Assembly (NCBI RefSeq): GCF_027622855.1 | Contig: NZ_JAPZVR010000002.1 | Span: forward strand, 169,463-229,024 | DNA: 59,562 nt | DNA from: Glycomyces algeriensis | GTDB taxonomy: Bacteria > Actinomycetota > Actinomycetes > Mycobacteriales > Micromonosporaceae | Direction of reading: 5' to 3' | Shown: one piece after another, positions 8,483 through 59,474 of the stretch | Position numbering within the stretch: the first letter of the stretch is position 1 | How the letters are laid out: every line of letters begins with the position of its first letter | Notes under the pieces: generated by a model | What the model was told of the DNA's origin: nothing | The model's input: only the letters and a program-made list of their open reading frames with translations | Database searches by the model: none | Position numbers and translations under genes: made by a program

Positions 8483-8775
8483 CGGCCCGGAATCGCAGCC
8501 GCCCTCGGCATCCCGGCCGTCCAGGTCGGCCCCGACGACGCCGGCAGGCCCACGCTCCTGGTACTCGCGGCCGGACTCATCCGCTCGAACCGGACGGCCT
8601 CGCCGCGTCGAGCGCATCGCCGCGCGCCAGGGCGAAACTCCCGGAAATGACCGAGCGGCCCAATGCTGGGTTGCCTACCAGCGGCCGCCGGCCGTCGCAT
8701 TCTCGCGCAGGCCTTCAAGCAAAAGCGACTACCTCGAGGTCGATATATCATGAAAAACACCGATGCAAAAGGGAC
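8483..8775. other. Intergenic stretch without a supported gene
   Basis: The region between the luxR stop and the aceB terminator. A short plus-strand frame from ~8490 (AALGIPAVQVGPDDAGRPT...) looks protein-like but has no start or ribosome site and stops near 8650; it may be the tail of a decayed gene. Nothing else stands out. Confidence 0.4.
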
Positions 8776-8814
8776 GGCGGAGCCGGACCGCCTGGGGACG
8801 GTGCCGGCTCCGCC
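8776..8814 (-). terminator. Terminator of aceB
   Basis: Perfect 11-bp stem GGCGGAGCCGG (8776-8786) / CCGGCTCCGCC (8804-8814), extended inward by CCG/CGG pairs. It lies 24 nt past the aceB stop on the minus strand. Confidence 0.75.
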
Positions 8815-8838
8815 GATGGGGACCGCTCAGTGCGGGGC

Positions 8839-10464: not shown

Positions 10465-10490
10465 GTGGTTCTCCTCATGTGGCAGTGCGG

Positions 10491-10510
10491 GAGCCGGCGC
10501 GGGCCGGCTC
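10491..10510 (-). promoter_or_regulatory. Hairpin between aceA and aceB
   Basis: Perfect 8-bp stem GAGCCGGC (10491-10498) / GCCGGCTC (10503-10510) with a 4-nt loop, in the 72-bp spacer. It could protect or attenuate the bicistronic message; no T tract follows, so it is unlikely to be a full terminator. Confidence 0.4.
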
Positions 10511-10536
10511 GCCGCAGCGGACAGGTCGCAGGGCAG

Positions 10537-11853
<1,317 letters not shown>

Positions 11854-18199: not shown

Positions 18200-19400
18200 C
18201 CTCGGCGCGCATCGTGAGCGCCGTCGCGGCGAACGCCACCGCGCTGACCACGCCGAGCACGTAGAACCCGTACCGGATGTGGGTCGTGTCGGCCACCCAC
18301 GCCACCACCACGGTCATGCCTGCCGAGAGGCCGAGGCCGACCGCGTTGACCGCGCCGAACACGCGGCCGGCCCGCGCCTCCGGCACCGCCGCCAGCAGCA
18401 GCGACCGCAGCCCCACCCGTGACAGACCGATCAGGAGCGCCGCGGCCGGGATGCAGATCAGCAGCGCCGCCAGGTGGATCGGGAACACGAACGAGAACAG
18501 CGCGCACCCGATCCCGCCGACCACCGCCGTCCGCAACTCCCCGAACCGCCTGCTCGCCTTCGGATACAGGGCCGCCGCGAAGCAGAACCCGAATCCCGCC
18601 AGCGCGTCGACGAGGCCGTAGACGCCCGCGCCGCGCCCGAAGCCCACGTAGACCAGCACGATCAGGGTGGTGTTGCTGACCATCGTCATGACCTGGCAGA
18701 TCGCGTAGAGGAAGCCGAGGCGCAGCAACGGCGCCCCTTGCCTGCCCTTCGGTTCCTCGGCGGTCTCGGCGGCCGCGGGAGCGCGGGGAGCGCGGCGCAG
18801 GGCCCAGAAGACCCCGGCCGAGGCCAGGAATGTCGCCCCGTTGAACACGAACAGCGGTGTGGTGCCCACGAATTGGATGAGGAACCCGCCGATGGAGGCG
18901 GCCAGGAGGGTGCCGATCTGGAGCGCCATCTCGTAGTGCGCACTGAAGCGGGCGACCCGGGCGGGGTGGACGCGTTCTTTGATGAGGGCGTTGCTCGCGG
19001 GCATGAACATGGCCGCGAGGAGGGCGAGGGCGAACGCGGTGCCGTAGGCGACGGAGCCGGGGTCGCCGCCCGCGAGCATCCAGGCCGGCAGGACGAGCGA
19101 GGCGGCGGCGCTGGCGAGGTCCGCGATGAGGCAGAGGGTGCGGCGGTCGAAGCGGTCGGCGATGGTGCCGAACCAGAGGGAGAGCAGTGCGGGCGGGACC
19201 GAGACGGCGATGAAGAGCCAGCCGACGGCCAAGGCGCTCTGGCCGGTCGTGAAGACGAGGACGGCGGCGGCGACGAGCTGAATGCCGTTGCCGAGGCTGG
19301 TGATGAACGTGGCGGGCAGGAGGAGTCGTTCGGCGCGGCCAGGGCGCGGCAGTGCGGTGTCGGGCTGCGGGGCGTGGGCGGTGACGGTCATGGGAAGCAT
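18156..19400 (-). CDS. MFS transporter
   Basis: 414 aa with about 12 hydrophobic segments. The loop 2-3 signature WFGTIADRFDRRTLCLIADL (~76-95) is of the DHA3/MefA-like multidrug type, and a charged central loop (RRAPRAPAAAETAEEPKGRQG) separates two six-helix halves. Substrate unknown; an exporter is likely. ATG 19400 has GGAG ~10 nt upstream; ATG 19391 is an alternative. Preceded by a perfect inverted repeat that may be its operator, and ends 44 nt inside the converging WYL gene. Confidence 0.9.
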   Translation of the reverse strand: MLPMTVTAHAPQPDTALPRPGRAERLLLPATFITSLGNGIQLVAAAVLVFTTGQSALAVGWLFIAVSVPPALLSLWFGTIADRFDRRTLCLIADLASAAASLVLPAWMLAGGDPGSVAYGTAFALALLAAMFMPASNALIKERVHPARVARFSAHYEMALQIGTLLAASIGGFLIQFVGTTPLFVFNGATFLASAGVFWALRRAPRAPAAAETAEEPKGRQGAPLLRLGFLYAICQVMTMVSNTTLIVLVYVGFGRGAGVYGLVDALAGFGFCFAAALYPKASRRFGELRTAVVGGIGCALFSFVFPIHLAALLICIPAAALLIGLSRVGLRSLLLAAVPEARAGRVFGAVNAVGLGLSAGMTVVVAWVADTTHIRYGFYVLGVVSAVAFAATALTMRAEVRRAGRPLQARAAA

Positions 19401-19413
19401 TGTGCGGAGGCTC

Positions 19414-19434
19414 CACTGACATCCTTTGTCAGTG
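19414..19434 (-). promoter_or_regulatory. Perfect inverted repeat upstream of the MFS gene
   Basis: CACTGACA (19414-19421) and TGTCAGTG (19427-19434), 5-bp spacer, 14 bp upstream of ATG 19400. The position suits a repressor operator; as RNA it could also end the upstream gene (stop at 19467). Confidence 0.55.
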
Positions 19435-19466
19435 AAGTGTCGTGGGGTCCGTCACAGCCTCCGGGC

Positions 19467-20171
19467 TCAGTGGAGGCGGCTGCGGAGGCGGGCGCCCGCG
19501 TCGGCGTACGTGTCGGGCAGTTCGGGGAGCAGGGTGAGGGCGGCCTCGACGCGTTCGCGGGTCGGGTTCGGGTCGTGGCGGACCGCTTCGAAGGCCGCGG
19601 TCGCGCTCATGGGGGCGAGCCGGGAGTGCCAGGCGGGGTGCGCGTGCGTGGAGGCGTAGTGCGCGGTCAGGGTCTCGATGGGGGTCAGCGGCGCGCCGGT
19701 GCGGCGCAGGAGGGGCGCGAGGCCGTACTGCGCGACCAGGTCGCAGATCTCCTGGGCGGTGGCCTGGTTGCGGCGGTGGGCGTCGTGGACCTCGTAGACC
19801 ACCGCGTAGACGAGGGAGCGCTCGCGGTCGGTCGCGGGGCCGGGATGCGGCACGTCCCACCAGAGCCCTTCGACGGCGGCGGGGCTGATCGCCGGCCGCT
19901 GCAAAGCGTCCTCGGCCGAGGTGGCGAGGGCCAGGCGGACGGCGCCGAGGGCGACGACGTTCTCCGAGTACCGGCGCAGGTACCGCAGTCCCCGGGCGGC
20001 TTCGGGTTCGGCCGCCTCGGCGTTCCGGCGCACCTGTTCGGCGGTCGGCCCGTCGGTCCACGTGCAGGTCCATGCCCCCGTCCCCGGGTCGTGCCCGATC
20101 TCGACGGGTGCGGCATAGGCGGCGGCGAGCCGGCGGAGACGTGTCTCGCGGTCGGGGGAGGCGGAAGGCAT
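19467..20171 (-). CDS. Hypothetical protein
   Basis: Unrecognised, 234 aa, soluble, mostly helical. Visible features: a basic N-terminus (MPSASPDRETRLRRLAAAYAAPVEIG), WTCTWTDGPTAEQVRR (~35-50), GLWWDVPHPG (~103-112) and a His/Trp-rich segment THAHPAWHSRL (~176-186). No membrane segment. It is the upstream neighbour of the MFS gene on the same strand but separated from it by the inverted repeat. GC and codon use match the surroundings, so it is an authentic gene. Confidence 0.75.
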   Translation of the reverse strand: MPSASPDRETRLRRLAAAYAAPVEIGHDPGTGAWTCTWTDGPTAEQVRRNAEAAEPEAARGLRYLRRYSENVVALGAVRLALATSAEDALQRPAISPAAVEGLWWDVPHPGPATDRERSLVYAVVYEVHDAHRRNQATAQEICDLVAQYGLAPLLRRTGAPLTPIETLTAHYASTHAHPAWHSRLAPMSATAAFEAVRHDPNPTRERVEAALTLLPELPDTYADAGARLRSRLH

Positions 20172-20219
20172 GGTGACATCCCATCACGTTCGGTGGCCGC
20201 CGGACCGGGGGGACGGAGG

Positions 20220-20249
20220 AGCGCCCGGCCGGAGGTCCGGCCGGGCGCT
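20220..20249 (-). terminator. Terminator of the VOC/AraC unit
   Basis: Perfect 13-bp stem AGCGCCCGGCCGG (20220-20232) with its complement at 20237-20249 and an AGGT loop, 11 nt past the VOC stop on the minus strand. Confidence 0.8.
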
Positions 20250-20260
20250 GTCATTCGGTG

Positions 20261-20665
20261 TTACTGCTGCTTGATGCGGACCATGTTGCCCGCCGGGTCG
20301 CGGAAGGCGCAGTCGCGGATGCCGTACGGCTGGTCGGTGGGCTCCTGGACGACCTCGGCGGTCTCCTGGAGCTTCGCGAAGACCTCGTCGAGGTTCTTGG
20401 TGGAGAGGTTGATGGAGGCGTAGGTGCCCTTGGCCATCATCTCGGCGATGGTCGCCCGCTCCTCGTCCGTGATGCCCGGGTCGGCGGCCGGCGGGTGCAG
20501 CACGATGGAGACGTCCGGCTGCCCTTCGGGCCCGACGGTGATCCACCGCATGCCCTCGTAGCCGACGTCGTTGCGGACTTCGAAGCCGAGCACGTCGCGG
20601 TAGAACTCGAGTGCGGCCTCAGGGTCGTTCTGCGGCAGATATGCCTGGTAAATGTTGATGTCCAT
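20261..20665 (-). CDS. VOC family protein (glyoxalase/bleomycin-resistance fold)
   Basis: 134 aa with N-terminal MDINIYQAYLPQNDPEAALEFYRDVLGFEV and C-terminal DCAFRDPAGNMVRIKQ, the classic VOC pattern with a C-terminal metal-ligand region. Downstream of an AraC gene by 10 nt, a common pairing in which the activator controls the enzyme. It also has its own -10-like TAGAGT (20678-20673) 7 nt before ATG 20665, so it may be expressed independently as a leaderless mRNA. Substrate unknown. Confidence 0.88.
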   Translation of the reverse strand: MDINIYQAYLPQNDPEAALEFYRDVLGFEVRNDVGYEGMRWITVGPEGQPDVSIVLHPPAADPGITDEERATIAEMMAKGTYASINLSTKNLDEVFAKLQETAEVVQEPTDQPYGIRDCAFRDPAGNMVRIKQQ

Positions 20666-20675
20666 GCCGGCAACT

Positions 20676-21128
20676 CTATTTCTTGCCGCGCGCGGGTGCT
20701 TCTCGATTCCTGATCGGTCTGCTGATCTGCTTCGAGACGCACGCGGGGATGCCCTCGGTCGCTGCGGCGGCCTTCTCCTTGTAGACGCTCGGCGGCATGC
20801 CCACGAGCTCGGTGAAGCGGGTGCTGAACGTGCCGAGCGAGGACGACCCCACCGCGAAGCACACCTCGGTCACGCTCAGCTCGCCGATGCGCAGCAGCGC
20901 CATCGCGCGTTCGATGCGGCGCGTCATGAGGTACGAGTACACCGATTCGCCGTACGCGGCCTTGAACTCGCGGCTGAGGTGCCCGGCCGACACGTGGACG
21001 CCGTGCGCGAGGGCCTCGACGTTGAGCGGTTCGGTGTACTCGCGGTCGATGCGGTCGCGCACGCGGCGCAGGAGCGCGAGGTCGCGGAGGCGCTGTTCGG
21101 GGATCGGGCGGCTGGTCACCCGCAACAT
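20676..21128 (-). CDS. AraC-family helix-turn-helix regulator (DNA-binding domain only)
   Basis: 150 aa or 147 aa if GTG 21119 is used. Two helix-turn-helix motifs of the AraC domain are seen: LNVEALAHGVHVSAGHLSREF and LSVTEVCFAVGSSSLGTFSTRF, the latter followed by VGMPPSVYK. There is no separate ligand domain; the VOC protein next to it may supply the ligand-related function. CACAAT (21132-21127) ends 7 nt before GTG 21119, which supports that start. Confidence 0.9.
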   Translation of the reverse strand: MLRVTSRPIPEQRLRDLALLRRVRDRIDREYTEPLNVEALAHGVHVSAGHLSREFKAAYGESVYSYLMTRRIERAMALLRIGELSVTEVCFAVGSSSLGTFSTRFTELVGMPPSVYKEKAAAATEGIPACVSKQISRPIRNREAPARGKK

Positions 21129-21211
21129 TGTGCCACCGCGTGCTGACAGCTGCCAGGAACGACGCTCGGCGCGAGCGGCTCCGGGCGCCGCCTGTGAGCT
21201 GCGAGACAGCG

Positions 21212-21240
21212 GAGCGCCCGCGGCGGGACCGCGGGCGCTC
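21212..21240 (-). terminator. Terminator of the UvrA-like gene
   Basis: Perfect 12-bp stem GAGCGCCCGCGG (21212-21223) with its complement at 21229-21240, 22 nt past the stop. Confidence 0.75.
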
Positions 21241-21261
21241 GGGGCGGGCGCATGGGGCCGT

Positions 21262-23637
<2,376 letters not shown>

Positions 23638-49309: not shown

Positions 49310-49424
49310 GTCGCCACCTGCCGATCGAGTCGAGCGCTCAAGGCGTTCGGATACCCGGGCACTGCGGCCGCGAACCGCTTTCGCGGTCCGGAGAGGATGC
49401 CGCGCCTCTTGCAGCGAATAGCGA

Positions 49425-49449
49425 AAAGGGCCCGGATTCCGGGCCCTTT
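49425..49449 (-). terminator. Terminator of the left tRNA-Cys
   Basis: Perfect 11-bp stem AAAGGGCCCGG (49425-49435) / CCGGGCCCTTT (49439-49449), ATT loop, flanked by GCG/CGC, with T4 on the minus strand. Confidence 0.85.
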
Positions 49450-49462
49450 CGCAAAGATCGAA

Positions 49463-49536
49463 TGGAGGTGGGTACGGGATTCGAACCCGTGTGCACGGCT
49501 TTGCAGGCCGTTACCTAACCACTCGGACAACCCACC
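49463..49536 (-). tRNA. tRNA-Cys (GCA), chromosomal side
   Basis: 74 nt with encoded CCA. Acceptor GGTGGGT/ACCCACC, anticodon loop CTGCAAA (GCA), T arm CGGGTTCGAATCCCG. Identical to the copy at 56743-56816. Confidence 0.96.
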
Positions 49537-49544
49537 ATGATGTG

Positions 49545-49573
49545 AAAAAAGCCCAGGCCTTGCGAACCTGGGC
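49545..49573 (-). terminator. Terminator between the truncated tRNA-Val and tRNA-Cys
   Basis: Stem GCCCAGG (49551-49557) / CCTGGGC (49567-49573) with T6 on the minus strand (plus A6 at 49545-49550). This is the presumed original terminator of tRNA-Val before integration. Confidence 0.8.
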
Positions 49574-49583
49574 CTTTCACTTC

Positions 49584-49628
49584 GGTGGACGATACTGGGA
49601 TTGAACCAGTGACCTCTCCCGTGTCAGG
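49584..49628 (-). repeat. attL: duplicated 3' half of tRNA-Val
   Basis: 45 bp identical to 56829-56873, from within the anticodon loop to the acceptor 3' end of tRNA-Val. The base pair before it differs, so the encoded 3' end here is CCG, versus CCA in the intact gene. Left attachment site of the integrated element. Confidence 0.9.
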
Positions 49629-50323
49629 CAATTATTACCCACCTAGATGTCCGTTTCGGAGAACGTTTCCGCAGCTAGAGACCGGTTAGCGACGGTGGTT
49701 GTCGGTGGTTGTTGGCTGTTGTTTTCCGCTGTTGTCCGCTGGTGTCGGCTCCCTTAACGGCTCCCCAGAACCATCCATAATGCTCTTTGGAGCCGGGCTC
49801 GATCGGACTCGCCACCTTGCCGCAGCCGACGCTTGCGGCGGCAAGTAGCCCTCGTTGATCCTGCGGTGGTGCCGCCGACCGCCACGGTCCGCTGCCACGA
49901 CGGCGGCTGACTACGTTCGTGTCGACCTTGGCTGAGACGGTGAACGGGGCTACGTCGGGCTCGACGCTCGCTGAACAGCCGCCTGCGGGTCGGGCACTCC
50001 ACGGTCTCCTCGTCGCTGCCCTGGCGCCCCTGCGCCCACCCGGCCCGGCGTCCTGCTTCATGCCGGCCGTTCTGCTTCTGGTCCGCCTCGCTGGCGCCGC
50101 CGCCGCCCGCGGAACGGCCGGAGGCCGCACGCCCCGGGCGAGCGGCGCGCGCCAGGCGCGCGAAGCGCGCCCTTGATGATGTATAGAAAGTTTGAACACG
50201 CACGCCAGGGCGCCATCGAGCCAGGACTTCCAGGGAACGAGAGAACTGCAGCTGCCGGAGTCAGGAGCTAGAAGCGTTGAGCAATCCCCATATCGGCATG
50301 AGCAATTGCGGTAAAATCTCCTG
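49629..50323. other. 695-bp left arm of the element without a supported gene
   Basis: Next to attL a GTTG-rich stretch (49690-49748) repeats GGTTGT/GTTGTC/CTGTTGT at ~10-nt spacing, suiting integrase arm sites or iterons. From 50,090 to 50,175 the DNA is a run of overlapping GCGCGC palindromes. Reading frames on either strand (e.g. 49919-50176 plus; 49675-50358 minus) lack ribosome sites and family resemblance; they may be decayed transfer genes. The last ~120 bp are AT-richer and lead into the cargo gene. Confidence 0.5.
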
Positions 50324-51676
50324 ATGGCAAACACTCTTGAACCGTCCGAGGTTCGCACAGGTCATCTAATTGATCCCAAGTCTGGCATTCCATTCCAAAC
50401 CTGCACTCTTAGGCATGAGCCCGGGCAAGGGGTTCTCCTGTCTATTCCATACTTGAACGGTGACCCGCAATTTGCAAAAATTGAGAACTGGTTCTCAAAT
50501 CAGGATCCTCCAAAGTCACTCATTTACCGGGACGACAAGGGATCAGTAACTCTTTCAGGCGTTCGCTGGCGAGGACATGGGCACTTTGGCTACACTTTGG
50601 GGCGATTGGGCGCGGATGTAGCAATATTCGAATATCCACGTCAGCTGAAGAACGAATACAAACTTGCACGAGTTCAGTCACGCATCGACGGCCTCAATGA
50701 ATTCAGTCGGTTTCAATCCATCAACCATGTCGGTTCTTTTGAAGATGGAGTTTACAAGTCTGTAGTAACAGTCAAGGCCGTTGAAAAAATGGTGGTACGA
50801 CATGGCGGGTTCACGTACATATTTCGGGCTGTTGTTCCTGGTGAGAACCGCCATAGCGTCTCTGGATCGAGATTTTCAGCTAAATCAGATACCGTTATTG
50901 AAACCAATAAGAGTCGTGGCGCGACCATGGACGAGCATATCGTGGCGCAATGGCCTATCCGCGCACTCTTGATTCTTGCGCATGGATCCGAGCAGTACTG
51001 GCGTGAGCACAAGATTCTGGATGACCAGTTCCCAGTTTGGATGATCTCAGGAGAAATCAAGGGTCCGATGTACGTCCCAGTTCGATTCCGCCGCACAATC
51101 CGCGATACAGAGCAACCAGAGAGACTCGATGGCGATAACTCATTTCCCGCATTTCAACTCCAGGACCTGGGGACTCGAGGACTCTTGCGGTGGCTAAAAC
51201 TGTATGACGACGAAAACTTCAGAAGAGCGATTGAGCCCGTAGTCGAAGTCATCAATGGGGCATCGAATTTCCTGGAGCCACAAGTGCTAATGACGGTTAT
51301 GGGCCTTGAGGCGATGGGCTACTTTCGGAATCCGAAGAAGGCGTCTTTGGAGGCTCATGTTAAGCGCTGCGTGGAAGCCACTAGAGTCAACTGGAGCGAT
51401 ATCGGCCGTAAATCTGGCATCGCACAGGCAATCGCAAGGGTGAATAATGACTTGAAGCATCCAGATCGACAGGCGCGCCCCAACGGACTAGAACTGAACC
51501 TCATTGCGAGCTTGTCTAAAACAATCATGCGATTGCAAATGATTGAGCTATTGGGTCTTCCGAAATCCCAATATGAGAGAATATCCAATTCAATGGGCGT
51601 GATCCACACCAAAGAACTATTCAGGCTTAACGGTGTCCGAATTACGTCTGGCGGAAACTTCGTAGATACGCCCTAA
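50324..51676 (+). CDS. Candidate ApeA/HEPN-type anti-phage protein (cargo gene)
   Basis: 450 aa, soluble. Roughly 1-200 is beta-rich (repeated W/G and aromatic strands, e.g. VTLSGVRWRGHGHFGYTLG), resembling the ApeA N-terminal domain; ~300-420 is all-helical. In the helical part R372-VNNDLK-H379 gives an Rx6H motif of the kind that forms HEPN RNase active sites, following the helix PQVLMTVMGLEAM. HEPN proteins with such N-domains cause abortive infection. G+C is ~50% in sampled rows versus >70% around, with A/T-ending codons: recent acquisition. TAAAAT (50312-50317) ends 6 nt before ATG 50324, so the mRNA may be leaderless. Assignment to ApeA is my inference; the gene itself is certain. Confidence 0.72.
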   Translation: MANTLEPSEVRTGHLIDPKSGIPFQTCTLRHEPGQGVLLSIPYLNGDPQFAKIENWFSNQDPPKSLIYRDDKGSVTLSGVRWRGHGHFGYTLGRLGADVAIFEYPRQLKNEYKLARVQSRIDGLNEFSRFQSINHVGSFEDGVYKSVVTVKAVEKMVVRHGGFTYIFRAVVPGENRHSVSGSRFSAKSDTVIETNKSRGATMDEHIVAQWPIRALLILAHGSEQYWREHKILDDQFPVWMISGEIKGPMYVPVRFRRTIRDTEQPERLDGDNSFPAFQLQDLGTRGLLRWLKLYDDENFRRAIEPVVEVINGASNFLEPQVLMTVMGLEAMGYFRNPKKASLEAHVKRCVEATRVNWSDIGRKSGIAQAIARVNNDLKHPDRQARPNGLELNLIASLSKTIMRLQMIELLGLPKSQYERISNSMGVIHTKELFRLNGVRITSGGNFVDTP

Positions 51677-51710
51677 AAGGCATACACACAAGGCTTGGGT
51701 ATTCATTTGT

Positions 51711-52052
51711 TCACCGCGGACCAGTTGAGGAAGAATCCTTTGTTTCCGTTAGAACCCATGCGTGGTAGTCGGGGCTGGCTTGATCGATCGCGGTTGCGAG
51801 TACACAAGGAACCTCGTAAGGGTGCTCCTGGTTGACAATCTTGATGATCTCGGAGACCAGTGATCGGCGAGTGTGGAGCATGACGCGGGCTTCGGGCTCG
51901 TCGTGGACTTGGCCGTCCCAGCGGTAGATGGAGCGGATCTCGACGAGGTTGTGTCCGCAAGCGGCTAGGCGCTCCTCGACCAGCTTGCGCGTGAACTCGG
52001 CGAGCCAGGCGGCATCGGGGGCCGTGATCGTCACTTCGCAGATGGGCTGCAC
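51711..52052 (-). CDS. cutA: CutA1-like divalent-cation tolerance protein
   Basis: 113 aa ferredoxin-like trimeric fold. Family features: LVEERLAACGHN-VEIRSIYRWDGQV (~24-48), EPEARVMLHTR, and the C-terminal HPYEVPCVLATAI...YHAWV (~78-100). CutA trimers bind metals or nucleotides and may be signalling proteins. GTG 52052 directly abuts the TAA of the upstream regulator, whose last codons contain the GGAGG-like site, so translation is coupled. A housekeeping-type gene is unexpected in such a small element. Confidence 0.9.
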   Translation of the reverse strand: MQPICEVTITAPDAAWLAEFTRKLVEERLAACGHNLVEIRSIYRWDGQVHDEPEARVMLHTRRSLVSEIIKIVNQEHPYEVPCVLATAIDQASPDYHAWVLTETKDSSSTGPR

Positions 52053-52655
52053 TTAGGACTCCTCCTGATTGAGGTCTGCGATCAGTGCTCGTGCTTCGGC
52101 CTCGCTGCGCGCAATGGCGCCCCAGCCGGTGCGGATGCTGCCGTCGTAGCTCATGCCGACCCAGCGGCCCTTCATGTGGACGCCGTGGGGGTGGACGGTG
52201 AAGTAGAAGGTGCCCTTCGAACGCACCGCTCCGTCATCGGCGGCGTACCAGCCGATGAGGACTTCGTTGTCCCACAGGCGAAGTTCGCCCTTCCAGTGGT
52301 ATCCGCCGTCCTCGACTGCGATGCCGCGGGTCGTGGTCTCGATGCGGAGCTGCTCTCCCTGCTGGCGGATCTCGACTTCCTGGGCCGTGATGACTTCCTC
52401 GAAGTCTTTCGAGGTCTGCCAGCTGGTCCACCAGCTTCCGGAAAGGTCGACGCGGTGGGTGGCGAGTCCGGCGAGTTCATCGACAGAGATGCCGAGGGCC
52501 TTGGCGATCTTCACTGCGACAGGCAGTGTCGGGTGAGATTCGCCCGCCTCGTAGCGCCGGATCTGGCGTGCCTCGACGCCGGCCAGCTTCCCGAGCGCGG
52601 CTTGCGAGAGTCCTCGTTCCTCGCGCTTCTCCTGGATGATTTCGTTCATCTCCAC
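52053..52655 (-). CDS. XRE-family regulator with a Trp-rich beta C-terminal domain
   Basis: 200 aa from GTG 52655 (GGGGGAG 8 nt upstream); the frame to 52790 would cross the promoter. HTH_3 ~3-60: IIQEKREERGLSQAALGKLAGVEARQIRRYE (quoted parts) and IAKALGISVDEL. The C-terminal ~130 residues form an unrecognised beta-rich domain with WWTSWQT, HWKGELRLWDNEVLIGWY, GRWVGMSYDG and GWG, lipocalin-like in aromatic pattern and perhaps ligand-sensing. First gene of a coupled pair with cutA, divergent from the small-rep-int operon. It probably acts as the element's switch through the operators at 52675-52795. Confidence 0.87.
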   Translation of the reverse strand: MEMNEIIQEKREERGLSQAALGKLAGVEARQIRRYEAGESHPTLPVAVKIAKALGISVDELAGLATHRVDLSGSWWTSWQTSKDFEEVITAQEVEIRQQGEQLRIETTTRGIAVEDGGYHWKGELRLWDNEVLIGWYAADDGAVRSKGTFYFTVHPHGVHMKGRWVGMSYDGSIRTGWGAIARSEAEARALIADLNQEES

Positions 52656-52674
52656 GGTTTCAGCTCCCCCCAGA

Positions 52675-52694
52675 AGAGGACCTTCTTGTCCTCT
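52675..52694 (-). promoter_or_regulatory. Operator-like inverted repeat in the XRE leader
   Basis: AGAGGAC (52675-52681) / GTCCTCT (52688-52694), 6-bp spacer, ~20 bp upstream of GTG 52655 and within the 5' UTR. It could be a repressor site or RNA hairpin. Confidence 0.55.
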
Positions 52695-52737
52695 AGCAGG
52701 GACTTTACCGTCTTCTTGAAAGAGGTCATTTCCGTCC

Positions 52738-52795
52738 TTGACGCGGTCGTTCATGTCCCCTAGTATAGGGACATAAACGTCCTCCCGCAAGGACG
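52738..52795. promoter_or_regulatory. Overlapping divergent promoters with two operators
   Basis: Rightward: -35 TTGACG (52738-52743), 17 bp, -10 TAGTAT (52761-52766). Leftward: -35 TTGCGG (52790-52785), 17 bp, -10 TATACT (52767-52762). The two -10 hexamers overlap. ATGTCCC-N8-GGGACAT (52753-52774) covers both; CGTCCT-N6-AGGACG (52778-52795) covers the leftward -35. The promoters are mutually exclusive and share one operator set, a bistable-switch layout. Confidence 0.8.
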
Positions 52796-52859
52796 AGAAA
52801 GCCCCAACGAGCTGTCACTCGTCAGGGCTGGATTCCTCAGATTTTGCCAAGGAGATCAG

Positions 52860-53411
52860 ATGTCCTCCCACGCTATCAAGAACCTGACTCGGAAGTCCAT
52901 GCCTTCCTGCTCACAGGCTTCGGGCTGCTGGTGCGGCTGCGGCGAGTGCTTCACCGCCACCGGCTGCGACTGCTCGAACCTCGCCGATGTCTTCGACCGT
53001 GGCGGGATGACCGCTGCTCTCTACTCCTCGTCGGCTTCGACCCGCGACCTCGAAGCGATGGTCTCGATCTCCGAGATCGAGTCCTACGCCATGGAGTCCA
53101 TCGACGCCTTCGGCATCGACGCGTTCGCGGGCCGGATCTCGGACGTGTCCGAGCAGACCGAGAACCGCTCCCGGTGGGAGGCCGCGCAGATGGCCGGGGA
53201 CACCTGGTGGCACAACGCGGTCCACAACCCGCCCCGGAAGAGGGTCGCTCCGCCCGTCGGGCAGCCCTGCCGCGAAGGCTTCATTGCGGCGGCGCGGGAG
53301 AAGATGGCGCGCGGCGAGATCGATTCGCTCGGGCTCGGTCCGACCACGACTGAGCAGGCGTTCGGGCACCTGCGCGGCTCCGGCCTCAACCTCGACATGA
53401 TCGGGCTGTGA
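52860..53411 (+). CDS. Element protein with an N-terminal Cys cluster
   Basis: 183 aa, unrecognised. The N-terminus has eight Cys within ~25 residues (~17-38: CSQASGCWCGCGECFTATGC and then C-S), a likely zinc- or Fe-S-binding knuckle; the rest is polar and helical with NPPRKRVAPPVGQPCREGF. First gene of the element's rightward operon, 85 bp after the divergent promoter, with AAGGAG 5 nt before ATG 52860. Its end overlaps the next gene as GTGA. A replication, excision or transfer accessory role is inferred only from position. Confidence 0.75.
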   Translation: MSSHAIKNLTRKSMPSCSQASGCWCGCGECFTATGCDCSNLADVFDRGGMTAALYSSSASTRDLEAMVSISEIESYAMESIDAFGIDAFAGRISDVSEQTENRSRWEAAQMAGDTWWHNAVHNPPRKRVAPPVGQPCREGFIAAAREKMARGEIDSLGLGPTTTEQAFGHLRGSGLNLDMIGL

Positions 53412-54022
53412 TCGCCATGAGCATGCTCGAAGCGACCACCCTGCACACCACCGAACCCGTTGCCTCCGAAGCGGACCGCGACCGCGCGGCCATGCCGGAA
53501 CCGGGCTGCCCCGGCTTCGACGCCTGGGTCCAGGCCGAGACCGACCGGATGCGGCAAGCGGCCCTCGACGCCGCCGCTCTCGCTGTCGCGACGGCCCCTC
53601 AGATCACTCATGAAGCGGTCATGACCGGCCGGTTCTCCGGTGAGTACGCGGAGGCCCTGTCGGCCCTGGCGCTCGTCGAGGGCATGACCACTGCGAAGGT
53701 GACCGGCCTGGTCCGTGTCGCGATGATGTCGGCGCTGTATCTGGCTGACTGCAAGGTCGCCGATCTGCGCGCGGCCCGCGAACCCGCCGAGATCACCGCC
53801 CTGGCCGCTCCCGTGGTTGACCGGCTCGGGTACCGGCACCTGATCAACCTGCACTACCGCGAAGCGGGGGATATCCGGCAGGGCAATCCCAGCACCGTGT
53901 TCCCCAAGGAAGGGCGGTACGGCGCGGCCGTGGATGCGGCGTACCGGTGGGACTGGCAGCAGATGCCCGAGGAGTGGATCGCCGAGCAGCGCCGCGCGGT
54001 GGGCGGGAAGGCCCGGGGTTGA
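53408..54022 (+). CDS. Element protein of unknown function
   Basis: 204 aa, unrecognised, soluble and helical with an Ala-rich core (~50-120) and a C-terminal WDWQQMPEEWIAEQRRAVG. GTG 53408 overlaps the preceding stop (GTGA) and its own TGA overlaps rep's ATG (TGATG), so the three are translated together. Position before rep matches the small hypothetical genes of pSAM2-like elements. Confidence 0.72.
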   Translation: MIAMSMLEATTLHTTEPVASEADRDRAAMPEPGCPGFDAWVQAETDRMRQAALDAAALAVATAPQITHEAVMTGRFSGEYAEALSALALVEGMTTAKVTGLVRVAMMSALYLADCKVADLRAAREPAEITALAAPVVDRLGYRHLINLHYREAGDIRQGNPSTVFPKEGRYGAAVDAAYRWDWQQMPEEWIAEQRRAVGGKARG

Positions 54023-55389
54023 TGGGCGCCGCTGTGGCGGCCACCGGCGGGGACCGGGAGCTAGTGCAGTTGATGCGCTCTCCCGGCTTCGCCTTGTGGC
54101 GCAAGAAGGTCAAGTCCGTTCACGGCTGCGCGTCCCCGGTCAAACTGCGCGGCTCCTCCCAGGTCACCCGCCGCTCGGACGGCGCGGTCCTCAAGTCCAC
54201 GGCCGGGTCGGTCTGGATCCCGTGCGGTACCCGCCGCGAGGCACTGTGCGAGTCATGCTCCCGGTGGTACGCCGAGGACGCCTTCCACCTCATCCGGGCC
54301 GGGCTCTGCGGCGACGCCTCCAAGGGCATCACCGCAGACGTGGCCGACCGGCCCCGCTGGTTCGTCACCCTCACCCCGCCGAGCTTCGGCCCGGTCCACT
54401 CCCGGATCGTCGGGGCCGGTGGGCGCATGAAGCGGCCCTGCTCCTGCGGGGAATGGCACCGCGAGGCCGACACCCGCCTCGGGCAAGCCCTGGACATGGG
54501 CGCCTACGACTTCGAGGCGGCGGTGCTGTGGCAGGCCAACGCCGGGGAGCTGTGGCACCGATTCACGATCAGCCTCAAGCGGGAACTCGCGCGGCTCGGC
54601 GGCATCCGCGTTGCCGACCTCCCGAACATGGTGCGGCTGTCGTACTCGAAGGTCGCGGAGTACCAGCGGCGCGGCATGGTCCACTTCCACGCCGCGATCC
54701 GCCTGGACGGCCCCGAGGGCGCTACTGCGGCACCTCCGGCGTGGGCCACCAAGGAGGCTCTGGCGACGGCCGTGCGCGCTGCTGCGGCTTCGGCGACGGT
54801 CACCACGGGACGCCGTGACGGGACGGTCCTGGATCTCGCCTTCGGGCGCCAGCTGGACCTGCGCGATATCACCGACCGCGCCGATGCCGGCCAAACCGAG
54901 GACGAGTCCCGGCAGGTCGCGGCCAGTCGCGTGGCCTCCTACGTCGCGAAGTACGCCACCAAGTCCACCGGCTCGCATGAGGGCCCGGACCGCAAGATCC
55001 GCTCGGCGGACGAGATCGAGGACCTGCCGGTGTCGGCGCACCACAAGGCCATGATGCGCACCGCTTGGGAGCTGGGCGGCCTGGAGGCGTATGCCGATCT
55101 CAACCTGCGCCGCTGGGCGCACATGCTCGGCTTCCGGGGCCACTTCCTCACCAAGTCGCGCGCCTGGTCGGTCACCCTCGGGGAGCTGCGGGCCATCCGT
55201 GCCCGGTTCCGCCTCGCCGAGGTCCTGGCCGAGCTCGAGGTCTCCGAGGACGACGTGCTCGTCGTCAACGACTGGGAGGCCGTCTCCTTCGGGCACGACA
55301 ACGATGCGGAACGCGAAGTAGCGCAAGCGATTGCAGCATCAATGATCCAAACAAGACAGACGAGACAACTGAAGGATGGCGACCGATGA
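54022..55389 (+). CDS. RepSA-like replication initiator (HUH rolling-circle type)
   Basis: 455 aa. Cys-rich N-terminal zinc-type motif (CGTRREALCESCSRW, ~74-88), PRWFVTLTPPSFGPVH (conserved T-T-x-P block, ~110-125), CSCGEWH, and the HUH motif MVHFHAAI (~218-225) as His-Phe-His. A catalytic Tyr probably lies in VASYVAKYATKSTG (~309-322), as Y-x3-Y-x3. Supports autonomous rolling-circle copies of the excised element. ATG 54022 overlaps the preceding stop; its end overlaps int as ATGA. No separate origin was identified. Confidence 0.88.
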   Translation: MGAAVAATGGDRELVQLMRSPGFALWRKKVKSVHGCASPVKLRGSSQVTRRSDGAVLKSTAGSVWIPCGTRREALCESCSRWYAEDAFHLIRAGLCGDASKGITADVADRPRWFVTLTPPSFGPVHSRIVGAGGRMKRPCSCGEWHREADTRLGQALDMGAYDFEAAVLWQANAGELWHRFTISLKRELARLGGIRVADLPNMVRLSYSKVAEYQRRGMVHFHAAIRLDGPEGATAAPPAWATKEALATAVRAAAASATVTTGRRDGTVLDLAFGRQLDLRDITDRADAGQTEDESRQVAASRVASYVAKYATKSTGSHEGPDRKIRSADEIEDLPVSAHHKAMMRTAWELGGLEAYADLNLRRWAHMLGFRGHFLTKSRAWSVTLGELRAIRARFRLAEVLAELEVSEDDVLVVNDWEAVSFGHDNDAEREVAQAIAASMIQTRQTRQLKDGDR

Positions 55390-56603
55390 GCGAGGGGACG
55401 GAGAACCCGAAAAGCCGGGCTCGAAAGCAGGCTCGGCGCGGCGATGGCTCGATCTACTGGGACGAGTCGAAGGAGTGCTACGTCGGCTCGATCTCACTGG
55501 GGACCGACCCGAAAGGGCGTCGCATCCGTCCGAGCGTCCGGGGCGAATCGGTCAAGGAGGTCCGCCGCAAGCTCAAGGAACTCAAGGACGACTACGCCGA
55601 CGGGATCGAGCTCGGCGACAAGTACACGGTGGAAGAGGCGGCTCGGGACTGGCTCAAGAGCGGTGTGCGAGGCCGTGAGGACAGCACCATGGAGAACCTG
55701 CATTCCTACACCGAGGTGCACATTATCCCCGGTCTCGGCAAGGCCAAGCTGAAGCGTCTGACGGCCGATCAGGTGGACACGTTCCTAGAAAGCCTGACAG
55801 ACAGGCTTGCGACCAGCACCATTGAGCGGGTGCTGAATACGTTGCGACGCATCATTCGGTTCGCGGAGTCGAGGAACAAGGTTCGCCGGAATGTGGCGCT
55901 CCTGGTCGACCCGCCCAAGGGCAAGGAGGGACGTCCTTCCAAGTCGATGACGCTGGTCCAGGCGCAAGCCGTCCTGCGGGCAAGTCGTGGGTCCTGGATC
56001 CACCCGTACATTGCGCTCTCCGTGTTCACAGGGGTCCGGACCGAGGAAGCGCGGCCCTTGAAGTGGCAGCACACGCACCTGAACCCGGTCAAAGGCGAGA
56101 TCTGCTCCTGCGGCGGCAAGCACCCGGAGACGGAGACGCCGCATGTGGAGGTCTGGCGCTCGGTCCGCACCACGAAAGACACCAAGACTCCGAAGAGCCG
56201 CCGGACCATCGCACTGCCGGCATATGTGGTGACGATCCTGACGGCCTACCGGATCAAGGACCAAATGGAGCGCGAGGACGCCGGGCGTGGCCGAGAGAAG
56301 GTGGAGTACGTCTTCGGAACGGTCAACAACACGGTGCGAGACGCGGCCAACGTCCGGCGTGATCTCCGGAAGATCGTCACCAAGGCCGAGGTGCCTGGAA
56401 GTTGGACGCCCCGGGAGCTGCGTCACACCTTCGTCTCACTGATGTCGGACCAAGGCGCGGATGAGGAGCTGATCGCCGATCTCGTCGGCCATGCGAGGAC
56501 CTCGACAACGCGAACGATCTACCGTCACCAGCTCCGGCCGGTCATTACCAAGGGCGCGGAGCTGCTGGACAAGGCGTTCAGCGAGGGCCTTCTAGAGAGA
56601 TAG
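55386..56603 (+). CDS. Tyrosine integrase of the element
   Basis: 405 aa site-specific recombinase. N-terminal arm-binding region ~15-75 (GDGSIYWDESKECYV...), SAM-like core-binding domain ~80-175, catalytic domain with Arg in FTGVRTEEARPL (~215-226), Lys turn, LRHTFVSL (HxxR box, ~342-349), GHARTSTT (~364-371) and nucleophile Tyr in IYRHQL (~375). It targets tRNA-Val, the attR of which lies 226 bp downstream. ATG 55386 overlaps rep's TGA. The frame back to 55065 overlaps rep and is not real. Confidence 0.95.
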   Translation: MSEGTENPKSRARKQARRGDGSIYWDESKECYVGSISLGTDPKGRRIRPSVRGESVKEVRRKLKELKDDYADGIELGDKYTVEEAARDWLKSGVRGREDSTMENLHSYTEVHIIPGLGKAKLKRLTADQVDTFLESLTDRLATSTIERVLNTLRRIIRFAESRNKVRRNVALLVDPPKGKEGRPSKSMTLVQAQAVLRASRGSWIHPYIALSVFTGVRTEEARPLKWQHTHLNPVKGEICSCGGKHPETETPHVEVWRSVRTTKDTKTPKSRRTIALPAYVVTILTAYRIKDQMEREDAGRGREKVEYVFGTVNNTVRDAANVRRDLRKIVTKAEVPGSWTPRELRHTFVSLMSDQGADEELIADLVGHARTSTTRTIYRHQLRPVITKGAELLDKAFSEGLLER

Positions 56604-56627
56604 AACGGCTCCCTTTTCGGCTCCTCT

Positions 56628-56660
56628 GGCCCTCGACAGCAATGCTGCCGGGGGCCTTTT
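56628..56660 (+). terminator. Terminator of rep-int
   Basis: Outer GGCCC/GGGCC pairs and an inner CAGC-AAT-GCTG stem between 56628 and 56656, then TTTT (56657-56660), 25 nt after the int stop. Confidence 0.65.
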
Positions 56661-56699
56661 CCATTGACAGAAGTCGATGGAATTCGGCCGGAAACACGT

Positions 56700-56728
56700 C
56701 AGACCACATAGGATTCCTATGTGGTCTG
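56700..56728. repeat. 29-bp perfect palindrome next to attR
   Basis: 14-bp arms (56700-56713 and 56715-56728) around a single T; core CACATAGGATTCCTATGTG. AT-richer than its flanks. It could terminate tRNA-Cys transcription (minus strand), bind Int/Xis, or act as a single-strand origin. As DNA it is a near-perfect dyad with no loop. Confidence 0.7.
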
Positions 56729-56742
56729 TCGATGAGCGTTTG

Positions 56743-56816
56743 TGGAGGTGGGTACGGGATTCGAACCCGTGTGCACGGCTTTGCAGGCCGTTACCTAACC
56801 ACTCGGACAACCCACC
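56743..56816 (-). tRNA. tRNA-Cys (GCA), inside the element boundary
   Basis: Identical over all 74 nt to 49463-49536, with encoded CCA. Only 11 nt separate it from tRNA-Val, versus 47 nt and a terminator at the left copy. It lies between int and attR, so it moves with the element if attL/attR are as drawn. Confidence 0.96.
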
Positions 56817-56827
56817 GCGAAAAACTT

Positions 56828-56901
56828 GGTGGACGATACTGGGATTGAACCAGTGACCTCTCCCGTGTCAGGGGAGTGCTCTCCCGCTGAGCTAATCGTC
56901 C
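56828..56901 (-). tRNA. tRNA-Val (GAC), integration target, intact
   Basis: 74 nt with encoded CCA (56828-56830). Acceptor GGACGAT/ATCGTCC, D arm AGCTCAGCGGGAGAGC, anticodon stem around CTGACAC (GAC), T arm CTGGTTCAATCCCAG. Its 3' half is the attR core (56829-56873) and is supplied by the element, keeping the gene functional. Confidence 0.96.
56829..56873 (-). repeat. attR core
   Basis: 45 bp, identical to 49584-49628. Crossover somewhere within this block; anticodon-loop-proximal end is usual for tyrosine integrases in tRNA genes. Confidence 0.88.
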
Positions 56902-56925
56902 GGGATAGCGCTCTTTCGAGCTCCG

Positions 56926-56998
56926 AGCGGACGACCGGGATCGAACCGGCGACCTACACCTTGGCAAGGTGTCGCGCTACCAACTGCGCTACGTCCGC
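56926..56998 (-). tRNA. tRNA-Gly (GCC)
   Basis: 73 nt without encoded CCA (CGG follows the discriminator position as CCG...). Otherwise identical to 41123-41198. Lies 24 nt upstream of tRNA-Val on the minus strand; Gly-Val(-Cys) is a tRNA operon. Confidence 0.95.
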
Positions 56999-57134
56999 AT
57001 GTCATTTCCAGTGGCTTTTTCGTTCCCCTGGCGACGGGATAGAACTTTACCCAATGCCCGACCGAGCGTCCACCGGGGGGTCGGGCCTTCCGGCTTCGGG
57101 CCATGTTGTCGCAGCGCTCTGGCAGAATCCTCCC

Positions 57135-59474
57135 GTGGCTCAAGCTATCGATCAACGCATCGCCGAAGAACTCTCGGTCGGCACCCATCAAGTCCGCTCG
57201 GCCGTCGCGCTCCTCGACGACGGCTCCACCGTCCCGTTCATCGCCCGGTACCGCAAAGAGGCCACCGGGGGCCTCTCCGACGAGCAGCTGCGCGCCCTCG
57301 AGGAGCGCCTGGGTTACCTGCGCGAGTTGGAGGCCCGCCGCAAGGCGGTGCTCGAATCGATCGGCGAGCAGGGCAAACTCACCGATGCGCTCGCCGCGCA
57401 GATCGACGCCGCCGACACGAAGGCGCGGCTCGAGGACCTCTACGCGCCCTTCAAGGTGAAGCGCCGCACGAAGGCGCAGATCGCCCGCGAGGCCGGGCTC
57501 GAACCCCTCGCGGAACTGCTGCTGAGTGATCCCTCACAGGACCCCGAGAGTGCCGCCGCCGCGTTCGTCGACGCCGCGAAAGAGGTGCCGGACACGGCCG
57601 CGGCGCTGGCCGGGGCGCGCGCGATCCTCACCGAGCGGTTCAGCGAGGACGCCGACCTCATCGGCGACCTGCGCGAACGCATGTGGCGGCGGGGCCGGCT
57701 GGTCTCGAAGGTCCGCGACGGGGCCGAGGAGAAGGGCGCGAAGTTCTCGGACTACTTCGACTTCTCCGAGACGTTCACCACGCTGCCCTCGCACCGGGTG
57801 CTCGCGCTCATGCGCGGCGAGAAGGAGGAGGCGCTCTCACTGGCACTCGAGCCGGGTGGGTCCGAGGTGGACGGTGCCGACTGCGAGGGCGTGATCGCCG
57901 CGAAGTTCGGGATCCGGGACGAAGGGCGGCCCGCCGACGCGTGGCTCGCCAAGACCGTCTCGTGGGCGTGGCGCACGCGCATCCTCGTCAAGCTGGGCGT
58001 GGACCTGCGGATGCGGCTGTGGCAGCTCGCCGAGGACGAGGCCGTGAAGGTCTTCGCCGCGAACCTGAAGGACCTGCTGCTCGCGGCCCCGGCCGGGCCG
58101 AAGACCGTGATGGGGCTCGACCCGGGTTTCCGGACCGGCGTGAAGGTGGCCGTGGTCGACCCCACGGGCAAGGTGCTCGACGCGACCGCGATCATGCCGC
58201 ACCAGCCGCAGAACCGCTGGGACGCTTCACTGGCGACCCTCGGCGCGCTCGTGGAGAAGCACGGCGTGCAGCTCATCGCGATCGGCAACGGCACGGCCTC
58301 CCGCGAGACCGACCGCCTCGCGGCCGACCTCATCAAGGCCGTGAACGGCAAGACCGAGTTGGCGAAGATCGTGGTCTCCGAGGCGGGGGCCTCGATCTAC
58401 TCGGCGTCGGCGTACGCGACGAAGGAGCTCCCGGGCATGGACGTGTCCCTGCGCGGGGCCGTCTCGATCGCGCGGCGGCTCCAGGACCCGCTCGCGGAGC
58501 TGGTGAAGATCGAGCCGAAGCACATCGGCGTCGGCCAGTACCAGCACGACCTGACTGAGTCCAAACTCACCAGATCCCTCGAGGCCGTCGTCGAGGACGC
58601 GGTGAACGCGGTCGGCGTGGACCTGAACACCGCTTCCGTCCCGCTCCTGTCGCAGGTGTCAGGGCTCTCCGAGAGCGTGGCCGCGAACATCGTGGCGTAC
58701 CGCGACGAGCACGGCCGCTTCGCCGACCGGAAGGCGCTCCTGAGCGTGCCCCGCCTGGGCCCCAAGGCCTTCGAGCAGGCCGCCGGGTTCCTCCGGGTCG
58801 CCGGCGGGGCCAACCCGCTCGACGCCTCGGCCGTCCACCCCGAGGCCTACCCGGTGGTCGAGCGCATCCTCGCCGCCACGGGCGCGCCGATCGGCGGGCT
58901 CGTGGGCGACGCGAAGACGCTGCGCAAGCTCAAGCCCGGCGACTTCGCCGACGACCGCTTCGGCGTGCCGACGGTCTCGGACATCCTCGCCGAGCTCGAG
59001 AAGCCCGGCCGGGACCCGCGGCCCGAGTTCAAGGCCGCCACCTTCAAGGAGGGCGTGGAGAAGGTCTCGGATCTCAAGCCCGGGATGCTCCTCGAAGGGG
59101 CCGTGACGAACGTCGCGGCCTTCGGGGCGTTCGTCGACATCGGCGTCCACCAGGACGGCCTGGTGCACATCTCGGCGCTCGCCAACCGGTTCGTGTCGGA
59201 CCCGCGCGAGATCGTCAAGCCCGGCGACGTGGTCAAGGTCAAGGTCGTCTCGGTCGACCTGCAGCGCCAGCGCATCGCGCTCACCATGCGCCTCGACGAC
59301 GAGGTGGAGGCCGGCGGCGCCGAACCGCGCGGCGGCGGCCAGCGCCAGGGCGGCGGGAGCAAGGGCGGCAAGGGCGGCGGACGCCAGCAGCAGCCGCGCC
59401 AGCGCGGCGGCCAGCAGGCGGCCCCGCAGAGCGCGATGGCCGAGGCGCTGCGCCGCGCCGGGCTGACGAAGTAG
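57135..59474 (+). CDS. tex: Tex-family RNA-binding transcription accessory protein
   Basis: 779 aa, usual Tex length. Tex N-terminal helical domain ([22 protein letters not shown] [17 protein letters not shown], ~28-45), YqgF-like domain with [10 protein letters not shown] and [11 protein letters not shown] (~325-405), helix-hairpin-helix region ([36 protein letters not shown]), and C-terminal S1 domain ([26 protein letters not shown], quoted parts, ~655-720). A Gly/Gln/Lys/Arg-rich RGG-like tail (~735-765) follows. Start GTG 57135 lies 6 nt after CAGAAT (57123-57128), suggesting leaderless mRNA. Upstream codons of the longer frame overlap the tRNA genes. Confidence 0.96.

What the first reader, a model, noticed from the sequence alone, without database searches (positions are those of the whole stretch)
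49584..56873. Minimal integrative element with a phage-defence-like cargo in tRNA-Val
A 45-bp direct repeat, tyrosine integrase, overlapping RepSA-like initiator and restored tRNA gene define a 7.3-kb integrated element. It looks like a stripped pSAM2-type AICE: rep and int are kept, but no TraB/FtsK translocase, Xis or Pra is visible, while a low-GC HEPN-like gene, a regulator and cutA occupy the left half. This could be a replicating defence satellite that borrows transfer functions.
Basis: partly seen in the sequence, partly recalled or inferred. Interest (0 to 1): 0.8.

Follow-up and report, generated by a model that had tools for sequence, protein, structure and literature searches.

The report
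Satellite element rebuilding a tRNA operon
A 7-kb inserted DNA element in an actinobacterium carries integration and replication genes and a likely antiviral gene but no transfer pump, so it would have to hitchhike on a fuller relative such as the one in the same genome, and it brings a spare tRNA-Cys gene that likely keeps the host's tRNA gene cluster whole after insertion.

Summary
The element is real: identical 45-bp repeats of the tRNA-Val(gac) 3' half at 49584-49628 and 56828-56872, with Int and RepSA intact. The uninterrupted site was matched in 16 of 22 genomes of the genus (Glycomyces), not in the host. No FtsK/TraB or relaxase was found. (1) The element carries a complete tRNA-Cys (56743-56816), so Gly-Val-Cys is re-formed after insertion while the native tRNA-Cys is stranded beyond attR. 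(2) The same genome holds a TraB+ AICE sharing a 383-bp non-coding origin-like block (89%). (3) Nine tra-less elements were delimited in seven genomes; three share a Rep clade, with rep under purifying selection (dN/dS 0.20). (4) cutA and the XRE gene are an AICE backbone pair (adjacent at 21 of 21 loci), not cargo. The cargo is an ApeA-family protein; defence was not tested. Best reading: a replication-competent, tra-less AICE derivative likely mobilised by another element's TraB. Mobilisation is inferred. Decay is the main rival: four of the nine are broken, and one sister's putative nick site is interrupted. Tra-less remnants or mobilizable elements were already suggested in Frankia, so this is a new variant.

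The parts
49463..49536 (-). native host tRNA-Cys(gca), outside the element, now beyond attR
   Evidence: ARAGORN; in 16 of 22 genus genomes tRNA-Cys, a 30-60 bp linker and an uninterrupted tRNA-Val are contiguous
49537..49583 (.). native 47-bp Cys-Val linker with a hairpin (read by eye)
   Evidence: same layout in L012, L013, L015, L026
49584..49628 (.). attR: 45-bp displaced 3' fragment of tRNA-Val
   Evidence: the repeat finder
49815..50197 (+). 383-bp non-coding origin-like block: hairpins followed by CTTGATGATGTATAGAAAGTTTGAAC at 50172-50197; shared with TraB+ AICEs
50324..51676 (+). cargo: ApeA-family protein (450 aa), predicted HEPN-type C-terminus
   Evidence: PF18862 0.0026, below its cut-off; 16 of 17 aligned members match PF18862 at E up to 0.1; model pLDDT 88.4
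51711..52052 (-). cutA (CutA1)
   Evidence: PF03091 5.3e-31; adjacent to xre at 21 of 21 loci
52053..52790 (-). XRE-family regulator (HTH_3)
   Evidence: PF01381 3e-16; 94-95% aa identity to the G017 element
52860..53411 (+). orf183, no family
53408..54022 (+). orf204, orphan family (4 protein-database relatives); 41% relative on another tra-less element (L115)
54022..55389 (+). rep: RepSA rolling-circle initiator
   Evidence: PF20199 5.2e-135; NF041486 1.3e-124, below that model's cut-off
55386..56603 (+). int: tyrosine integrase (405 aa)
   Evidence: PF00589 1.3e-15
56701..56731. inverted repeat just past the element-borne tRNA-Cys, in terminator-like position (read by eye; the terminator scan did not list it)
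   Evidence: a hairpin with a similar CATAG/CTATG core lies at the same place in G014
56743..56816 (-). element-borne complete tRNA-Cys(gca)
56817..56827 (.). 11-bp Val-Cys linker of the element
   Evidence: beside the host only G014 (12-bp linker) matched a short-linker pattern among 354 family genomes
56828..56872 (.). attL: 45-bp copy, part of the restored tRNA-Val
56827..56901 (-). restored tRNA-Val(gac)

Best explanation
This is a 7.24-kb integrated element, a tra-less relative of pSAM2-type AICEs with intact RepSA and tyrosine integrase genes, that is predicted to excise and replicate by itself and likely spreads by borrowing the TraB pump of a fuller AICE, while the tRNA-Cys gene it carries would keep the split tRNA operon whole. 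Shown: the att repeats, uninterrupted sites in relatives, the gene set, no FtsK/TraB domain by profile search, the shared non-coding block, the co-resident TraB+ AICE, the second tRNA-Cys, and a Rep clade of three tra-less elements. Inferred: Int excises the circle; RepSA nicks at the CTTGAT site after the hairpin at the end of the block; the double-stranded circle is pumped by TraB of a co-resident element that carries the same cis block; in the new host Int inserts it into tRNA-Val, its attP supplying the tRNA-Val 3' half plus a whole tRNA-Cys and hairpin, so that Gly-Val-Cys is transcribed as one unit although the native tRNA-Cys is stranded 7.3 kb away; the ApeA-family gene likely pays its way as phage defence.
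For: Repeats, tRNAs and ORFs; no TraB found; uninterrupted sites 16 of 22, four of them read in full; a BLAST of the own genome finds two tRNA-Cys copies, both here, and no third; TraB+ AICE on contig C3 with the 383-bp block at 89% and 27-bp repeats at the RNase P RNA 3' end; FtsK-domain AICE-like locus in 4 of the 7 genomes with tra-less elements; tra-less Rep clade of three species, support 95/97; dN/dS of rep 0.20, xre 0.15, cutA 0.26 between the window and G017 elements; in G033 the tra-less and the full element share one variant hairpin-nick sequence that differs from the Glycomyces forms.
Against: No excision, replication or transfer data. Of nine tra-less elements four are visibly decayed (L079 int split, L066 rep truncated, L080, L070), as expected of remnants; two of these are the window's nearest Rep kin. 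The putative nick motif is not intact everywhere: G017's block has a 5-base insert inside it and G008's a changed base. Three of the seven genomes (G008, G010, G017) show no AICE-type TraB (my reading of the list). The block may serve Rep alone; no array of 8-bp repeats such as TraB binds in clt (PMC4170104, passages) stands out in it (most frequent 8-mers three copies, GC-rich), and block similarity does not track TraB similarity. No Xis was found. Whether the stranded native tRNA-Cys is silent is untested. ApeA assignment of this member alone is weak (17.7 bits, cut-off 25.5).
Confidence: 0.5

Rival explanations
1. A decaying AICE remnant: an ordinary AICE that lost traB, spd and xis and is on its way out, not mobile any more.
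For: Four of nine tra-less elements carry broken rep or int; the putative nick site of the G017 sister is interrupted; AICE decay is common in Streptomyces (PMC9513070, passages and Discussion); tra- or rep-less elements in Frankia were called remnants or mobilizable (PMC3218068, section 10).
Against: Rep and Int are intact here; tra-less Reps of three species group together and rep is under purifying selection between two of them; inside that clade the sites differ (tRNA-Val gac and tac), so the type has moved after losing traB, unless integrase modules were swapped.
Confidence: 0.31
2. A self-mobile element with an unrecognised transfer protein (orf183 or orf204) acting in place of TraB.
For: orf204 has no family, only four database relatives, and a 41% relative on another tra-less element (L115).
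Against: Neither ORF was found in the closest sister element (L079) at tblastn 1e-6; no ATPase or membrane-pore family was found.
Confidence: 0.08
3. The element moves by another route, such as transduction or chromosomal (Hfr-like) transfer by TraB, and the shared block is only a replication origin.
For: The block ends in a hairpin plus CTTGAT motif, as expected of a pC194-type nick site (core recalled; pSAM2 placed in that family by te Poele as cited in PMC3218068, passages); TraB can move chromosomal DNA (same paper, passages).
Against: No packaging gene family among the ORFs; integrase relatives in phage records are all under 60% identity; no IMG/VR hit for Rep or for the attR junction.
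Confidence: 0.11

Closest known systems
pSAM2-type AICE (RepSA, tyrosine Int, TraB); here also the TraB+ element on contig C3 of the same genome (L009)
   Same: rep then int at one end, integration at the 3' end of an RNA gene, origin-like block next to the far att site
   Different: no TraB/FtsK, none of the unassigned protein that sits where spdB usually lies (label recalled), no excisionase-like ORF; half the size (7.2 versus 14.4 kb); XRE-CutA instead of a GntR regulator
Frankia AICE remnants or mobilizable integrating elements Fean1457, Fcci0407, Fcci1144, Feul5809 (Ghinet 2011, PMC3218068)
   Same: AICE-like elements lacking tra or rep, suggested to be remnants or mobilizable (section 10)
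   Different: no helper, shared cis block, Rep clade or tRNA rebuilding described in the section and passages read; their sequences were not compared here
IMEs and SGI1-like islands that hijack a conjugation system
   Same: would depend on another element's transfer machine
   Different: no relaxase family found; the system borrowed would be a double-stranded DNA pump
ApeA (HEPN abortive-infection protein)
   Same: ApeA N-terminal domain 1 in 16 of 17 members scanned; helical C-terminus with a nearly invariant N-N-D-L-K-H stretch
   Different: the R of the usual R-N-x-x-x-H motif (recalled) is not conserved; PADLOC does not call it; no activity test

Membership tests
AICE (pSAM2 type) | site-specific integration at the 3' end of a tRNA gene by its own integrase | tested here: met
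   45-bp repeat, Int gene, uninterrupted sites in relatives; Int activity itself not tested
AICE (pSAM2 type) | replication initiator (RepSA, RepAM or Prim-Pol) | tested here: met
   PF20199 over 2-438/438
AICE (pSAM2 type) | TraB/FtsK-type transfer protein | tested here: not met
   no PF01580 match in the element in the six-frame genome search, none in its ORFs
AICE (pSAM2 type) | excisionase (Xis) | tested here: inconclusive
   none in ORFs of about 70 aa or more; rep and int overlap, leaving no room between them
AICE (pSAM2 type) | excised, replicating circle and conjugal transfer | not testable with these tools
   needs PCR, reads or mating
IME (T4SS-dependent) | relaxase | tested here: not met
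   no relaxase family in 17 ORFs
TraB-dependent satellite | cis site recognised by a helper TraB (clt) | tested here: inconclusive
   383-bp block shared with TraB+ AICEs, but it may be a Rep origin and shows no clear 8-bp repeat array; no clt is described for pSAM2 (PMC9513070)
TraB-dependent satellite | helper present in the same genome | tested here: met
   TraB+ AICE on C3; in 4 of 7 genomes overall
ApeA | ApeA N-terminal domain | tested here: inconclusive
   16 of 17 members incl. this one match PF18862 at E up to 0.1, best 6.6e-10, but this member stays below Pfam's cut-off
ApeA | HEPN fold with catalytic motif | tested here: inconclusive
   HEPN_Apea in 2 of 17, best E 0.025; invariant H379 but R372 not conserved; fold searches inconclusive

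The most novel reading that the evidence does not exclude
Glycomyces hosts a lineage of satellites of AICEs: compact RepSA-Int elements that have given up TraB, keep a shared, exchangeable cis block with the full AICEs, carry defence genes as payment, and in this case transport a whole tRNA-Cys so that insertion into the middle of an essential tRNA operon is silent. It would be a double-stranded-DNA-conjugation counterpart of phage satellites (none turned up in my searches), and the block would hold the clt that PMC9513070 says is not described for pSAM2.
Probability: 0.33. Interest if true: 0.8.

Novelty: new variant of a known kind. Interest (0 to 1): 0.56.

Why it matters
[quoted passage not shown] This locus gives a testable pair: a small tra-less element and a TraB+ AICE in one genome with a shared 383-bp non-coding block. 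The carried tRNA-Cys gives a clear test of how an element can enter the middle of a tRNA operon with a gene that has no other copy found in the genome.

Tried and rejected
Recombination in tRNA-Cys (74-bp repeat) rather than tRNA-Val: considered, rejected. It would leave an unexplained 45-bp tRNA-Val fragment; 16 of 22 genus genomes have the long Cys-Val linker that here lies outside the Val repeat, and sister elements have 43-45 bp tRNA-derived repeats in most cases (L066 43, L078 45, L080 43, L064 45; but L076 66 and L079 two 22-bp runs).

G014 as a second insertion with a tRNA copy: rejected; no match to the window integrase and no flanking repeat was seen there, and the short Cys-Val linker looks native (part of the stretch to its left reads N).

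XRE-cutA as a satellite marker: rejected, it also occurs on TraB+ AICEs (5 of 17 newly fetched loci). Block type tracking Rep or TraB: not found; block groups cut across both.

Fold of the ApeA-like model: Foldseek gave no match at E 0.001; the VIA second look gave only middling Z (top 7.6), nearly all to the N-terminal part; profile search of PDB sequences nothing credible. Rfam shows only tRNAs in 49400-57200. Promoter and terminator scan: no more sites than in shuffles. Plasmid collection: no block match; Rep relatives in 20 records, all under 60%. IMG/VR: nothing. Paper searches without any hit; Glycomyces with integrative and conjugative: two papers, unrelated by title and abstract. Two searches for carried or downstream tRNA genes at integration sites (listings only, 12 of 14 and 12 of 232 papers shown, plus passages of PMC4383910) showed no precedent in what I saw; this is not proof of absence. 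ApeA papers: listing only.

The B_xis query in my scripts was cut in a wrong frame and holds a stop; its hits are not used. On re-reading, the motif at the block end proved not intact in every copy; I lowered the best explanation from 0.55 to 0.50, the novel case from 0.35 to 0.33, and raised the decay rival for that.
Full report
WHERE IT LIES. The window is contig C12:169463-229024 of a 5.59-Mb, 34-contig genome.

OBSERVATION. The 45-bp repeat is exact (49584-49628 and 56828-56872) and covers the 3' half of tRNA-Val(gac). Inside are an ApeA-family gene, cutA, an XRE regulator, two orphan ORFs, repSA and int. Empty site: an exact pattern with tRNA-Cys, 30-60 bp and tRNA-Val running past the repeat matched 16 of 22 genus genomes and not the host. 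A 17th, G014, has an uninterrupted site with a 12-bp linker; the other four without a match (G003, G007, G012, G020) were not followed. Four of the 16 sites were read in full between a uracil-DNA-glycosylase-like and a tex-like gene (names recalled; L012, L013, L015, L026).

A CARRIED tRNA. Two identical tRNA-Cys genes flank the insertion: the native one, 49463-49536, with the 47-bp linker typical of the genus, lies outside; the other, 56743-56816, lies inside, 11 bp from the restored tRNA-Val. A BLAST of the own genome finds no third (two further matches are of 18 and 30 bases). On the minus strand the order after insertion is Gly-Val-Cys-inverted repeat, then 7 kb of element, then the tRNA-Val fragment, the linker and the native Cys. 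Beside the host only G014 of 354 family genomes shows a Cys-Val gap of 2-32 bp under an exact pattern; its Cys is also followed by a hairpin with a similar core. Inference: the attP was captured from a G014-like host by imprecise excision, and the carried gene keeps the operon whole. No promoter evidence supports or excludes this.

THE RESIDENT FULL AICE. Contig C3 carries a 14.4-kb element (L009) with 27-bp repeats at the 3' end of the RNase P RNA gene, with int, RepSA, an FtsK-domain protein and an unassigned protein between rep and it, plus a small ORF before int that I read by eye as a MerR-like excisionase. It shares with the window element rep (78% DNA) and a 383-bp non-coding block at 89%.

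THE BLOCK. Matches with E below 1e-15 come from 13 of the 22 genus genomes, the host included (counted from the rows, which searched 201 genomes; the weaker hits there are mostly short GC-rich matches). Ten blocks from tra-less and full elements align, with invariant hairpin stretches and a terminal motif CTTGAT...GTATAGAAAGTTTG. Eight of the ten have the motif intact; G017's copy has a 5-base insert inside it and G008's a changed base. A script that sought the motif found it in 12 distinct elements and not in L070, L078, L079 or L080. The hairpin sequence before it changes while the motif stays: two forms in Glycomyces and a third in G033, shared there by its tra-less and its full element. 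The 3' part folds strongly (z -2.7 in the window, -5.1 in L009). PMC3218068 cites te Poele for placing pSAM2 with the pC194 family by its nick site, while its own motif analysis relates RepSA of the SAM2 type to the phiX174 group (passages); that CTTGAT is the pC194-type core is recalled. I read the 3' end as the rolling-circle nick site; the remaining about 300 bp could be a clt or part of the origin. No array of 8-bp repeats stands out. Block groups (window, L009, L079, L049 at 84-89%; L066, L051, L053 at 78-87%; 70-80% across) cut across the Rep groups, which suggests that the block has been exchanged between tra-less and full elements.

SISTER ELEMENTS. Nine tra-less elements were delimited by direct repeats: the window; G017:C9 (L079, two 22-bp runs one base apart); G010:C3 (L066, 43 bp); G004:C39 (L078, 45); G033:C1 (L076, 66); G008:C9 (L080, 43); G013:C1 (L064, 45); G013:C24 (L070, 43) and G010:C9 (L115, 24 bp, boundary less sure). 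No FtsK-domain match falls in any of the nine (the seven genomes were chosen because they hold them, so this is no estimate of frequency). Rep and int are uninterrupted in the window, L078, L076 and L064; L115 has a full-length rep and an integrase-like ORF that I did not test; L079, L066, L080 and L070 are broken. Eight block-bearing loci with TraB were seen (L009, L049-L054 and L056; L050 and L052 run to contig ends), and a ninth, L105, in G033. FtsK-bearing AICE-like loci share a genome with tra-less elements in G000, G004, G033 and G013: 4 of 7.

REP HISTORY. In a tree of 16 Reps the window, G017 and G010 tra-less elements form a clade (95/97; the G010 Rep is a 271-residue piece), five full Glycomyces AICEs another (100/100), and the full G003 element lies outside both; the G033 tra-less and full elements are sisters (97/95); G004:C39 sits on a long branch and its place is unsure. 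So there is one tra-less lineage in at least three species, plus at least one separate origin. dN/dS (my own Nei-Gojobori script) between the window and G017 is 0.20 for rep, 0.15 for xre, 0.26 for cutA.

XRE-CUTA. The XRE protein is found in 21 of 354 family genomes, 10 genera, and cutA is adjacent at 21 of 21 (with the window). Five of the 17 newly fetched loci carry a TraB relative. The pair is in 4 of 9 tra-less elements (window, L076, L078, L079) and 0 of 8 Glycomyces full AICE loci at tblastn 1e-6, two of these incomplete. CutA1 is also named in the legend to the Frankia AICE figure of PMC3218068.

CARGO. 86 relatives of the 450-aa protein were found; 16 of 17 aligned members match ApeA_NTD1 and 2 match HEPN_Apea weakly. 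N375, L377, K378, H379, P380, D381 and R382 are invariant. In the family 6 of 354 genomes, the host included, hold a relative, the other five at 25-28%, so it looks like an import. The same slot next to the block holds other defence-like genes: PDC-M36A in L066 (5e-21), PDC-S33 in L056 (1e-111), a DUF4365 protein with a weak Aga_REase match in L009 (1e-9); the ORFs tested in L079, L051, L053 and L049 gave no convincing defence family.

VERDICT. A replication-competent, tra-less AICE derivative, likely mobilised in trans, with a junction that re-forms a tRNA operon. The idea of tra-less mobilizable AICEs is in print (PMC3218068, section 10 read), and PMC9513070 (Discussion read) poses TraB hijack as an open question. 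The lineage, the shared block and the carried tRNA make it a new variant.

Noticed in passing
L009 4700-19109 (host contig C3) and L054 1995-15696: Two full AICEs in two Glycomyces genomes lie between 26-27 bp repeats at the 3' end of the RNase P RNA gene, an unusual target beside tRNA genes.
   Followed up: partly
window 51711-52790 and 20 other loci: XRE regulator and CutA1 are adjacent at 21 of 21 loci in 10 genera; why a CutA1 protein should partner an AICE regulator is unexplained.
   Followed up: partly
host contig C9 around 18502-23204 (L106): A third RepSA-type gene in the host genome (41% to the window Rep), with an FtsK-domain match nearby that contains one stop codon.
   Followed up: no
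L115 (G010:C9) 3476-11143: Another tra-less element with an orf204 relative (41%), rep at about 50%, an integrase-like ORF of another type and a 354-aa ORF that looks like a membrane protein.
   Followed up: partly
L066 10068-10622: A NUDIX gene on a tra-less element; NUDIX exclusion is cited for AICEs in PMC9513070.
   Followed up: no
window 49583 and 56827: The base next to the att core differs between host and element copy, so the restored tRNA-Val ends in an encoded CCA while the displaced host end does not.
   Followed up: no
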